Shown here piece after piece: positions 20,745-22,395 of a DNA stretch of 64,000 nt. The stretch's first letter is position 1; each line of letters starts with the position of its first letter. Below the pieces are notes generated by a model. That model was not told the DNA's origin. It did no database searches and was given only the letters and a program-made list of their open reading frames with translations. Origin of the DNA: Gemmatimonadota bacterium (GTDB lineage: Bacteria; Latescibacterota; UBA2968; UBA8231); assembly GCA_018660835.1 (NCBI GenBank), contig JABJJN010000014.1, forward strand, positions 186,001-250,000, in the 5' to 3' direction. The position numbers and the translations under genes were made by a program.

Positions 20745-21039
20745 GCTTGTGCCAATTCGGTCTCTGTGAGGTTATGTGTACCACGCATAAGACTTGGTGT
20801 CTCATAGTCAGTTCCATAGCTCCCCCAGGCCCCACAGGTCGTAGGACATAGTCGTTCTGCCTCTGAGGATTGCCTTGTAGGGAGGATGAAGGCCCACTGG
20901 GTCACATGCAAGAGCATCGGTGAAAAAAGGTCTCGTATCAGTTCGTTTTCAGTACTTGTACGGATAGGTAGCCCCCTTGGCCGAGGGTATATTGGCGACG
21001 CTCTCCATCCGCTGCTGCCGCCTTCAGGAGCTTCGTCCA
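20745..21039. other. intergenic, no confident gene
   Basis: About 295 bp between the methyltransferase start and the small HTH gene. Open frames exist on both strands, but their composition does not look coding and none has a ribosome-binding site or recognisable motif. The region must carry the promoter of the minus-strand run and probably that of the HTH gene. I could not pick out convincing -35/-10 pairs. Confidence 0.5.
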
Positions 21040-21222
21040 ATGTTGTTGAACTCCGTCTCACCAGAGTCCCTCGCGCGCGTCGCCCGTCTGTATCGTACCA
21101 GCAAAGAGGCTGGCGCTGCCATAGGTCTTACGATGCGAGGCTTCTCGCGAGCGTGCCGTCGCCACGGGATCGAAACCCCTGCGGCTCGACGCGGTCGGGA
21201 ACGCCAACTCGCCCGAGGCTAG
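21040..21222 (+). CDS. small helix-turn-helix protein (hypothetical)
   Basis: A 60-aa basic protein. A predicted helix-turn-helix runs from about S7 to I44, with S-K-E-A-G-A-A-I-G-L-T-M-R-G-F-S-R-A-C-R and R-H-G-I-E-T-P-A-A-R-R. The tail is Arg-rich (R-R-G-R-E-R-Q-L-A-R-G). CAGGAG lies 9 bp before the ATG, which decides the start. The motif A-C-R-R-H-G-I-E echoes L-C-R-Q-H-G-I-T at the end of the sigma-like protein 0.5 kb downstream. It is probably a DNA-binding regulator. I do not recognise a named family, and a chance ORF is not fully excluded. Confidence 0.55.
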   Translation: MLLNSVSPESLARVARLYRTSKEAGAAIGLTMRGFSRACRRHGIETPAARRGRERQLARG

Positions 21223-21275
21223 CTGCGCTTCGCAAGGGATTCAAGTTTTTTTGAGTTCTCTCTGATTTATTTCGC

Positions 21276-21357
21276 TACATCGCGTGAAAAGTGCATCCGC
21301 CACGATGTAAGGGTGGTCACTATCCGCACAGGAACTGCTCGCCTGTGAGTTTTTTTT
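21276..21357 (+). terminator. tandem hairpins ending in a strong intrinsic terminator
   Basis: The first hairpin pairs TACATCG (21276-21282) with CGATGTA (21303-21309), with extra GTG/CAC pairing inside. The second pairs CACAGG (21327-21332) with CCTGTG (21342-21347) and is followed by AG and eight T (21350-21357). It would end transcription of the small HTH gene and insulate the promoter that starts 30 bp later. The first hairpin may belong to a structured 3' UTR or a separate small RNA. Confidence 0.7.
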
Positions 21358-21387
21358 GGAATTATGCAGATTTACAGGAACTTTGGC

Positions 21388-21417
21388 TTGACATCGTATC
21401 AGGCGCTCTGATACGCT
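21388..21417 (+). promoter_or_regulatory. sigma-70-type promoter with extended -10
   Basis: A perfect -35 TTGACA (21388-21393), an 18-bp spacer and TACGCT (21412-21417) preceded by TG (21409-21410), i.e. an extended -10. Transcription would start near 21424. The terminator just upstream and the ribosome-binding sites downstream support its use for the leader transcript and, with read-through, the sigma-like gene. Confidence 0.65.
21396..21414. promoter_or_regulatory. perfect inverted-repeat operator inside the promoter spacer
   Basis: GTATCAG-GCGCT-CTGATAC: two perfect 7-bp half sites with a 5-bp spacer, lying between -35 and -10 and overlapping the first bases of the -10. A dimeric HTH protein bound here would block RNA polymerase. 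The 60-aa HTH protein encoded upstream is a natural candidate (inference). Confidence 0.6.
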
Positions 21418-21506
21418 CTTAATAGCAACGACGACGAAGAGGGCCGCGCGTCTCAATTCGTCTGATGAAACGTCATCAAACGCACGCGCAAGAAAGGGGT
21501 AGTCGA

Positions 21507-21590
21507 ATGCTTTTTAACGAATTCGCGGATGTAGTAATGATCTGTGAAGGCCAGCTGCCTCTGTGCAGGAGTAGGGACCGACAACGTTAA
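21507..21590 (+). CDS. 27-aa small ORF (possible leader peptide)
   Basis: ATG at 21507 with AAAGGGG ending 7 bp upstream; 27 codons to TAA at 21588. The peptide begins M-L-F-N-E-F-A-D-V-V-M-I-C-E and ends basic (C-R-S-R-D-R-Q-R). Its stop codon lies in the loop of the 21574-21602 stem, and the terminator follows 30 bp later. This is the geometry expected of a translated leader that controls RNA folding. There is no obvious run of one regulatory amino acid apart from four Arg near the end. It could equally be a short functional peptide. Confidence 0.45.
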   Translation: MLFNEFADVVMICEGQLPLCRSRDRQR

Positions 21591-21619
21591 GTCGAAAGTC
21601 CCACCTATCTCTCCTACCC

Positions 21620-21655
21620 AGCCGCAGCCGCCCTCACAGGCACTGCGGCTTTTTT
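21620..21655 (+). terminator. intrinsic terminator or attenuator
   Basis: AGCCGCAG (21620-21627) pairs perfectly with CTGCGGCT (21643-21650), followed by six T (21650-21655). It lies 62 bp before the start of the sigma-like gene with no obvious promoter between, so it may act as an attenuator. Confidence 0.8.
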
Positions 21656-21717
21656 CGTGGCACGATGCGAGGTTTTTCTCGCGTCATTCGAGAAAGAAAA
21701 CATGGGAGAGAGTGTTC

Positions 21718-22092
21718 GTGTATAACCCTGACTTCTGGGAAGTCCGTCTCGACCATTCCGACCTGGAGCGCTATCCGGACCAATCAGCGCTCTGGTTTGA
21801 TACGGTTGAGGAGCGTCGTCTGCAGCGACGCAGTCAGGCCCGAGCCCGGCGGCTTTTTGGGCCTGTTATGGAGCTGGTCACCGCCTCGCTGACACATCGT
21901 CAGCGTGAGGCCCTGCTCCTCTATTTCGTCCACGGTAAGACGCAGGAGGAGGTTGCCGAGATCATGGGCATCAACCGACGCGTCGTTAGCCAGCACCTGT
22001 TCGGTATCCGGCGCAATGGTCGCCAGGTAGGGGGAGCCGTCCCCCGCCTGCGACGGCTCTGCCGACAGCATGGCATCACAGCCGATGTCTGA
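21718..22092 (+). CDS. sigma-70 region 4-like DNA-binding protein
   Basis: A 124-aa protein. Residues 56-98 resemble sigma region 4: S-L-T-H-R-Q-R-E-A-L-L-L-Y-F, then the helix-turn-helix T-Q-E-E-V-A-E-I-M-G-I and R-V-V-S-Q-H-L. There is no sigma region 2, so it is not a complete sigma factor. The N-terminal 50 residues are acidic and aromatic. GTG 21718 is preferred because GGGAGAG lies 7 bp upstream. Longer frames would run through the terminator. It is followed after 90 bp by a small membrane protein gene. It could be a transcription factor of the orphan region-4 type. Confidence 0.7.
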   Translation: MYNPDFWEVRLDHSDLERYPDQSALWFDTVEERRLQRRSQARARRLFGPVMELVTASLTHRQREALLLYFVHGKTQEEVAEIMGINRRVVSQHLFGIRRNGRQVGGAVPRLRRLCRQHGITADV

Positions 22093-22182: not shown

Positions 22183-22395
22183 GTGGAATACGTTCGCCGA
22201 GAGGACTTCCGGACCTGGTGTTCCGAGGTGGGCTACCTCTATGTCGTGGTGGCCGCCTTCGTTACGATCGCCATGCTTATGGGCAGCCTCGGCAGCTACA
22301 TAGGTAGTGTCGATTTGCGAGATGATGAGAATCGCAGGTTGTCGGCCGAATATCTCGGGCCGGAAGCCCACGTTGTACCTGCTGCATATCCATAA
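22183..22395 (+). CDS. small single-pass membrane protein (hypothetical)
   Basis: A 70-aa protein. GTG start with a strong GGAGGTG 5 bp upstream. One transmembrane helix (about 16-41, rich in V, A, I, L, M), a charged N-terminus (R-R-E-D) and a hydrophilic tail. The family is unknown. It lies 90 bp behind the sigma-like gene and before a terminator, so the two probably share a transcript. A membrane-bound sensor, anti-sigma-like partner or small stress protein are all possible. None is shown by sequence. Confidence 0.6.
   Translation: MEYVRREDFRTWCSEVGYLYVVVAAFVTIAMLMGSLGSYIGSVDLRDDENRRLSAEYLGPEAHVVPAAYP

What the first reader, a model, noticed from the sequence alone, without database searches (positions are those of the whole stretch)
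21424..21655. Unrecognised ~230-nt structured transcript with an embedded 27-codon ORF
A perfect -35 and extended -10 start a transcript that ends in an 8-bp terminator with six T. Between them I see a GC-rich outer stem, an inner 6-bp AACG-loop hairpin, a 9-bp stem with an AAA bulge, and a small ORF with a good ribosome-binding site whose stop lies in the loop of that stem. It matches no riboswitch or small RNA class I know. It could be an attenuator for the sigma-like gene just downstream, a riboswitch, or a dual-function RNA.
Basis: partly seen in the sequence, partly recalled or inferred. Interest (0 to 1): 0.72.

Follow-up and report, generated by a model that had tools for sequence, protein, structure and literature searches.

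The report
Ribosome-controlled switch for a stress regulator
The stretch is an RNA switch at the start of a gene for a small DNA-binding regulator: a ribosome reading a tiny upstream gene probably decides which way the RNA folds and so whether the regulator is made, an arrangement conserved in several groups of little-studied bacteria.

Summary
Window 21287-22092 holds a conserved DNA element, a promoter, a short ORF (27 codons), an intrinsic terminator, and a gene for a protein that is little but sigma-70 region 4. The same order stands before 28 of 28 orthologues found in the class and before 15 of 16 (one not parsed) in a second phylum, one of those with a truncated uORF. RNA strands can pair in mutually exclusive ways, as in trp leaders: SD1 with the uORF end (1:2), uORF end with the terminator's 5' side (2:3), terminator (3:4); D also hides the regulator's SD. 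Native pairings beat pairings swapped between 14 genera (2:3, D:SD2: 0 of 100,000 permutations as good; 1:2: 2,226). uORF peptides differ between genera, so ribosome position rather than peptide is probably sensed. The DNA element recurs before genes for IF-1, RsgA, RIO kinases, exporters and ten-codon ORFs, suggesting a translation-stress regulon like WhiB7's with an unrelated regulator. No Rfam family matches. No expression data: trigger and regulon are inferred. New variant of a known kind.

The parts
21287..21312 (+). Conserved DNA element AAAAGTGCATCC-N6-[G/A]TGTAAGG; candidate binding site or promoter of the regulator itself
   Evidence: AAAGTGCATCC lies upstream of 27 of 28 class orthologues; AAAAGTGCATCCGC occurs once, exactly, in this genome; recurs before other genes
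21388..21417 (+). Sigma-70-type promoter: TTGACA, 18-nt spacer, TG-extended TACGCT; an inverted repeat CGTATCAG/CTGATACG (21395-21402/21408-21415) lies between
   Evidence: Sequence; TTGACATCGTATCAG and CTGAT-ACGCTC kept in G001; not found by the consensus scan
21424..21655 (+). Attenuated leader RNA (the reported feature)
21495..21503 (+). Strand 1: SD of the uORF, AGGGGUAGU
   Evidence: Pairs with 21554-21562, 9 pairs including G-U
21507..21590 (+). uORF, 27 codons, MLFNEFADVVMICEGQLPLCRSRDRQR*
   Evidence: 27 codons also in G001 (MLIHVFADFLSICDGRLPLCRSRDQHR*); a uORF of 13-27 codons in 28 of 28 class orthologues
21549..21582 (+). Strand 2: 3' part of the uORF (GGC, GCUGCCUCU, AGGAG, GGGAC), pairs with strand 1 or with strand 3
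   Evidence: Folds with and without the terminator 3' arm; duplexes
21598..21632 (+). Strand 3: GUCCC, anti-SD D (UCUCUCC 21608-21614), and terminator 5' arm / GCAGC-C-GCC (21620-21632)
21620..21655 (+). Intrinsic terminator (3:4): 8-bp stem, T6
   Evidence: Hairpin -19.5 kcal/mol
21704..21712 (+). SD2 of the regulator gene, sequestered by D (21608-21614)
   Evidence: D:SD2 duplex -15.9 kcal/mol; native better than swapped in 14 genera, 0 of 100,000 permutations
21718..22092 (+). Regulator gene (GTG start): sigma-70 region-4-only protein
   Evidence: Pfam Sigma70_r4 E 1.5e-10, Sigma70_r4_2 E 3.1e-10; N-terminus YNPDFWEV shared by relatives

Best explanation
The transcript is the leader of the sigma-region-4 regulator gene and works as a ribosome-mediated attenuator with two outputs. 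With no ribosome on the uORF, its SD (strand 1) pairs with the uORF's 3' end (strand 2), so the terminator (3:4) forms and any read-through RNA has the regulator's SD2 paired with anti-SD D. With normal translation the ribosome runs to the uORF stop and covers strand 2, with the same result: OFF. When a ribosome is held at or soon after the uORF start (translation inhibitor, starvation or another stress), strand 1 is covered but strand 2 is free; strand 2 pairs with D and the terminator's 5' arm, which removes the terminator and frees SD2: ON. The regulator made then acts on the AAAGTGCATCC-N6-GTGTA element at its own and other promoters. SHOWN by sequence and comparison: the parts, their order, their conservation, and the covarying, mutually exclusive pairings. 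INFERRED: the ribosome logic, the stress signal, and binding of the element by the regulator.
For: Architecture: 28 of 28 class orthologues have SD1 plus uORF, and a T-run that begins 42-76 nt before the NP(D/S)FW codons; AAAGTGCATCC in 27 of 28. Second phylum: 16 of 16 genomes hold the gene; 15 leaders parsed, 15 with the element's core and a T-run of 6-9, 14 with a uORF of 25-38 codons (12 by script, 2 by eye), 1 with the uORF cut at codon 3. Pairing: native versus swapped between 14 genera, permutations reaching native: 2:3 0 of 100,000, D:SD2 0 of 100,000, 1:2 2,226 of 100,000. Dinucleotide-shuffled partners: 0 of 200 reach the native advantage for each; three control pairings show none. 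1:2 in register: 93 of 104 cells standard in 13 distinct rows, 4 of 8 columns with a both-sides change, 0 of 2,000 shuffles as good. Folds of G000 and G001: 1:2 + terminator for the whole leader, 2:3 when the 3' arm is left off. Peptide not conserved between genera; frame over GCCUCC differs in G027. Regulon hints: element before IF-1 in 3 genera of 2 phyla, RIO kinases in 3 genera, RsgA in this genome, exporters.
Against: No transcript, ribosome or binding data. In 11 of 28 class leaders (all genus g9) the terminator hairpin is weak or ill-formed (-8.8 to -13.6 kcal/mol, T5-T6), and G102 shows no T-run terminator, so translation control may dominate there. Several full-leader folds (g4, g9, G036, G035) keep 2:3 rather than the terminator as minimum, so equilibrium folding alone does not give the OFF state there. 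1:2 has the weakest covariation, was counted with the window's register shifted one base by hand (unshifted: 90 of 104, 3 columns) and with G008 and G011 left out (no GCCTCC). In the window's genus the anti-SD ends 28 nt before the uORF end, so a terminating ribosome may not cover it fully; in G004 it lies past the stop. G340's uORF ends at codon 3. The -10 is weak and no TTGACA-type promoter is evident in genus g4 or f4 g12 (by eye). Most two-mismatch element matches read later look like chance.
Confidence: 0.77

Rival explanations
1. The leader controls only translation: D hides SD2, and uORF translation or stalling frees it; the terminator is a minor or lineage-specific addition.
For: D:SD2 has, with 2:3, the clearest covariation and is present in g9, where the terminator is weak. 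VmlR shows that both levels can coexist (PMC9226507, passages).
Against: A clear hairpin before a T5-T8 run in the other 17 of 28 class leaders, window included (judged by eye), and T6-T9 runs in 15 of 15 parsed leaders of the second phylum; 2:3 reaches into the terminator's 5' arm.
Confidence: 0.13
2. Amino-acid-specific attenuator of the trp/his type: the uORF senses shortage of one aminoacyl-tRNA.
For: Same 1:2, 2:3, 3:4 logic; uORF present throughout.
Against: No run of one codon; the peptides differ between genera; the gene downstream is a regulator, not a biosynthetic enzyme.
Confidence: 0.05
3. Riboswitch or protein-binding leader (ligand or the regulator itself decides the fold) in which the uORF is incidental.
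For: A leader with exclusive folds before a possibly autoregulated gene could be read this way.
Against: SD plus uORF kept in 28 of 28 class leaders, with AAGGAGG in 20 of 28; no conserved aptamer-like core seen; no Rfam hit.
Confidence: 0.03
4. Stand-alone small RNA or dual-function RNA with a working 27-aa peptide.
For: 27 codons in both g1 genomes; own promoter and terminator.
Against: Peptide not conserved outside the genus; strands pair with the downstream gene's SD; always seen beside that gene, though most loci were found through the gene.
Confidence: 0.02

Closest known systems
WhiB7/WblC leader and regulon of actinobacteria
   Same: Transcription factor gene behind a uORF and Rho-independent terminator, with an antiterminator using uORF and terminator sequence; regulon of ribosome-associated proteins and resistance genes (PMC11550727, PMC10727445, PMC7157823: passages).
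   Different: The regulator here is a sigma-region-4-only protein, not a WhiB Fe-S protein; another DNA element; other phyla; extra SD1:uORF and D:SD2 pairings. Response to antibiotics untested.
Bacillus subtilis vmlR leader
   Same: uORF, anti-antiterminator, antiterminator, terminator, and a hairpin partly sequestering the structural gene's SD (PMC9226507: passages).
   Different: vmlR encodes an ABCF resistance factor, not a regulator; no regulon-wide DNA element is mentioned in the passages seen.
trp-type leaders of enteric bacteria (recalled)
   Same: Four-strand 1:2, 2:3, 3:4 logic with a leader ORF.
   Different: Strand 1 is the uORF's SD itself; no control codons; second, translational output.
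Sinorhizobium meliloti DUF1127 leader
   Same: uORF-dependent attenuation with pairing between the uORF's RBS and its own codons, responding to tetracycline (PMC12218461: passages).
   Different: There presumably Rho-dependent, attenuation element at the start of the uORF; here intrinsic terminators and strand 2 at the uORF end.

Membership tests
Ribosome-mediated transcription attenuators (trp-like) | Short leader ORF with ribosome-binding site before the structural gene | tested here: met
   28 of 28 class orthologues
Ribosome-mediated transcription attenuators (trp-like) | Mutually exclusive anti-antiterminator, antiterminator and terminator | tested here: met
   Folds and swap tests; by computation only, and 1:2 is the weakest
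Ribosome-mediated transcription attenuators (trp-like) | Intrinsic terminator between leader ORF and gene | tested here: met
   Clear in the window and, by eye, in 17 of 28; weak in 11 of 28
Ribosome-mediated transcription attenuators (trp-like) | Run of control codons for one amino acid (amino-acid operons only) | tested here: not met
   uORF sequences; hence not filed as an amino-acid attenuator
Ribosome-mediated transcription attenuators (trp-like) | Termination depends on uORF translation | not testable with these tools
   Needs RNA or reporter data
WhiB7/WblC system | Regulator is a WhiB-type Fe-S protein | tested here: not met
   Pfam and NCBIfam hits are sigma region 4 (the best NCBIfam score, 38.8, is under its cut-off of 42.9); fold hits are sigma -35 binding domains, best E 0.016, model pLDDT 70
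WhiB7/WblC system | Leader with uORF and Rho-independent terminator | tested here: met
WhiB7/WblC system | Regulon of ribosome factors and resistance genes under one DNA element | tested here: inconclusive
   Element enriched and found before IF-1, RsgA, RIO kinases and exporters, but binding unproven and many weak sites look like chance
Known Rfam riboswitch or sRNA families | Match at or above gathering score | tested here: not met
   0 matches in the window; only sub-threshold hit BcKCsr2, E 0.3, 16.1 bits against 40
Two-subunit sigma factors (SigO/RsoA type, recalled) | Separate region-2 partner protein | not tested
   Considered because the protein is region 4 only

The most novel reading that the evidence does not exclude
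A widespread translation-stress response of little-studied bacteria, found in at least three lineages, in which a sigma-region-4-only protein is itself the promoter-recognising part for a 22-nt promoter (AAAGTGCATCC-N6-GTGTA), is switched on by a stalled ribosome through a dual attenuator, and in turn drives IF-1, ribosome-maturation factors, exporters and companion ten-codon ORF/terminator RNAs that carry the same device: a counterpart of WhiB7 with an unrelated regulator and an unusual promoter.
Probability: 0.35. Interest if true: 0.82.

Novelty: new variant of a known kind. Interest (0 to 1): 0.68.

Why it matters
It would show that bacteria far from actinobacteria evolved, apparently on their own, the same logic as WhiB7: sense stalled ribosomes on a short ORF, switch on a transcription factor, and remodel translation and export. 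It gives little-studied lineages a testable stress circuit with a defined leader, DNA element and candidate regulon, and a region-4-only sigma-like protein whose way of acting on RNA polymerase is an open question.

Tried and rejected
Rfam at gathering score over the window and at E 1 over 21250-21760: nothing. DNA search for the leader in 147 genomes: 13 matched at E 0.1, but only G000 and G001 over a long stretch; the other 11 (about 21-36 nt, E 0.014 to 0.09) were dropped as chance. Protein scan of viral contigs: none with the single protein; 3 weak, partial relatives with the alignment, not pursued. Phage origin therefore found no support. PADLOC gave only a weak hit of the region-4 part to a CARF model (E 2e-4): rejected. 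The single-sequence MFE reading was set aside for comparative pairings. A trp-like control-codon reading was rejected. Seven paralogous matches in classmates (one each in G026, G028, G033, G034, G037, two in G035) were left out of the leader set; the two read (L100, L101) carry AAAAGTGCCTTATA..GTGTATAGG upstream. Of the 32 two-mismatch or similar element loci fetched, most look like chance (inside ORFs or with no gene start behind); at least 5 (L202, L203, L204, L209, L220) stand before a gene. Papers: eight searches listed no description of this system by title and start of abstract; this covers only the held open-access library.

Full report
What is there. The window lies in a 7.1-Mb draft genome; the contig of the same-genus relative G001 is, by number and length, apparently that of a record titled 'Gemmatimonadetes bacterium isolate SAT162'. 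The reported stretch ends 62 nt upstream of a gene (21718-22092, GTG start) whose protein is sigma-70 region 4 and little else (Pfam Sigma70_r4 E 1.5e-10). A predicted structure (mean pLDDT 70) has sigma -35-binding domains among its best PDB matches, weakly (best E 0.016).

Conservation. By DNA the leader is found in G001 (83% identity, query bases 56-232). By the protein it is much wider: 9 of 25 genomes of the family (one of the nine, G012, a weak partial match that the profile search did not confirm), 28 of 47 of the class, none of the 17 other genomes of the phylum (28 of 64), and 3 of the 275 genomes outside the phylum in a sample of 339 (the split is by handle numbers). Around one of those three, 16 of 16 genomes of its phylum have it. 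In the class all 28 orthologues carry an SD with a uORF (13-27 codons; AAGGAGG in 20 of 28) and a T-run before the gene; 27 of 28 have AAAGTGCATCC upstream (G043 has TGGTGCATCC). In the second phylum 15 of 16 leaders could be parsed (G339 was not found by my pattern); all 15 have the element's core and a T-run; 12 uORFs were found by script, 2 by eye (G348, G352), and G340's is cut at codon 3. In G102, of another lineage, the exact element, SD1 and a 26-codon uORF are present but no T-run terminator.

The switch. Four strands are named: 1 = the uORF's SD; 2 = the uORF's 3' end; 3 = an anti-SD (D) plus the terminator's 5' arm; 4 = the terminator's 3' arm. In the window 1:2 is AGGGGUAGU (21495-21503) with GCUGCCUCU (21554-21562); in G001 it holds GAGGCAG/CUGCCUC, in g5 GGAGACAG/CUGUCUCC, in G036 GGAGGCGAAU/AUUCGCCUCC. 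2:3 in G001 is GGGCGGCUGC with GCAGCCGCCC plus AGGAG with CUCCU; in G041 it holds CCUAUCCGC with GCGGGUAGG, in G038 by eye the same with GCGGAUAGG. D also pairs with the regulator's SD2, over up to about 19 pairs with lineage-specific extensions. Folding the G000 and G001 leaders gives 1:2 plus terminator for the whole leader and 2:3 when the 3' arm is left off. Other leaders vary: G009, G005, G042 and G043 also show 1:2 or the terminator, while g4, g9, G036 and G035 keep 2:3 even in the full fold, so there the OFF state must come from the ribosome or the order of folding, not from equilibrium.

Is that more than chance? If each pairing is real, a genome's own partners should fit better than partners swapped between genera. 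For 10 genera (G001 for g1): 1:2 -16.8 versus -14.7 kcal/mol (p 0.01), 2:3 -30.0 versus -23.5 (p 1.7e-4), D:SD2 -22.2 versus -16.7 (0 of 100,000); with G000 in place of G001 nearly the same. For 14 genera of two phyla 2,226 (1:2), 0 (2:3) and 0 (D:SD2) of 100,000 permutations reach the native mean. An earlier run with 13 class leaders gave 2e-5 for 2:3, though in single rows the native partner was often not the best one. Shuffling partners within each genome removes the effect (0 of 200 each), and three pairings that should not exist show none. For 1:2 in fixed register, 93 of 104 cells are standard pairs and 4 of 8 columns have both-sides changes (G008 and G011 left out, window register shifted by one base; without the shift 90 of 104 and 3 columns). 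The windows of each strand were set by me from SD, stop codon and T-run; G046's strand 3 was made 4 nt longer from then on. These tests do not correct fully for relatedness.

What it senses. The uORF peptides are unalike between genera, hold no run of one codon, and in G027 the conserved GCCUCC is read in another frame than in its genus mates. So the position of a ribosome, not the peptide, is the likely signal: held early, it covers strand 1 and frees strand 2. This is inference. The anti-SD ends 5-16 nt before the uORF end in 20 of 26 leaders counted, 24 in 3, 28 in the two g1 genomes, and past the stop in G004, so a terminating ribosome would cover it only partly in g1. Weak terminators in genus g9 (11 of 28) suggest that hiding SD2 carries more of the control there.

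The DNA element and a candidate regulon. AAAAGTGCATCCGC occurs exactly once in this genome, at 21287-21300. AAAGTGCATCC-N4..8-GTGTA has 28 matches in 24 of 47 class genomes and none for the reversed control; the window's own copy (GATGTA) does not match it, and one match (G042:C200) lies inside an ORF. With up to two mismatches and N6, the 28 genomes with the regulator have 118 matches, of which by my count 27 are the leaders, against 20 control matches; the 19 genomes without it have 21 against 10. Many of the 91 others are one site repeated in the eleven g9 genomes, so they are not independent. Of 31 non-leader matches with at most one mismatch I read 19 in context: 18 lie upstream of an ORF on the same strand, 1 (L218) does not; one further (L158) ends a contig. 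Genes behind the element, some at two mismatches, include IF-1 (G036, G042, G102; infA model above cut-off for G036 and G102, Pfam for G042), RIO kinases (G028, G035, G042), RsgA in this genome (TIGR00157 above cut-off), aldo/keto reductases (G005, G028), ABC exporters (G025, G043), a MacB-like permease (G032), a HlyD-type adaptor (G030), and related proteins in g9 and g13 (40% identity, one with a PcfJ domain). Right after the regulator gene in several class members, and just before it in G102, the element stands before an SD, a roughly ten-codon ORF and a terminator with no larger gene inside (MEPITWRCAV, MLHIYPEGIA, MDNVMMRDVV, MLSNQRRCDT; read by eye). Some targets have their own uORF and terminator (L139, L156, L178; by eye). 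At L177 and L179 the first in-frame start lies 4 nt after GTGTA (true starts unproven), which suggests that the element may itself be a promoter. Most of the 32 sites fetched later look like chance.

Known relatives. WhiB7/WblC in actinobacteria has the same logic: uORF and terminator before a transcription factor gene, an antiterminator on translation stress, and a regulon of ribosome-associated and resistance proteins (PMC11550727, PMC10727445, PMC7157823; passages). VmlR adds SD sequestration (PMC9226507; passages). The system here works like these, as far as sequence can tell, but is not a WhiB7 system: the regulator is of another family. It is filed as a new variant of ribosome-mediated attenuation. 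None of my eight paper searches listed this leader or protein, by title and start of abstract.

Noticed in passing
21327-21357: Between the conserved element and the TTGACA promoter lies CACAGG-AACTGCTCG-CCTGTG-AG-T8, a second terminator-like hairpin in this genome; G001 shows no such T-run there.
   Followed up: no
21395-21415: Inverted repeat CGTATCAG-GCGCT-CTGATACG lies in the promoter spacer and runs into the -10; largely kept in G001. Possible repressor site in this genus.
   Followed up: no
20977-21222: ORF of 81 aa resembling a helix-turn-helix protein by eye, no Pfam hit; G001 keeps the upstream TAGTACTTGTACGGAT..TATATTGG-like stretch and the ORF's end but lacks its middle.
   Followed up: partly
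22183-22395: 70-aa ORF just after the regulator gene, alike in G001 but frameshifted there; no Pfam hit.
   Followed up: partly
L184, L191, L190, L183, L180-L182, L227: Element + GGAGG-type SD + about ten-codon ORF + strong terminator near the regulator gene, with no larger gene inside: candidate small RNAs or sensors. In G030 (L180) it lies about 11 kb away.
   Followed up: partly
L227:1368-1646: An IF-1 gene with the element (two mismatches) upstream lies directly before the ten-codon module and the regulator gene in G102.
   Followed up: yes
L161, L162, L175: Element, TTGACG promoter, then a short GTG-started ORF of 10-12 codons, with an ECF sigma gene (Pfam for L161) downstream.
   Followed up: no
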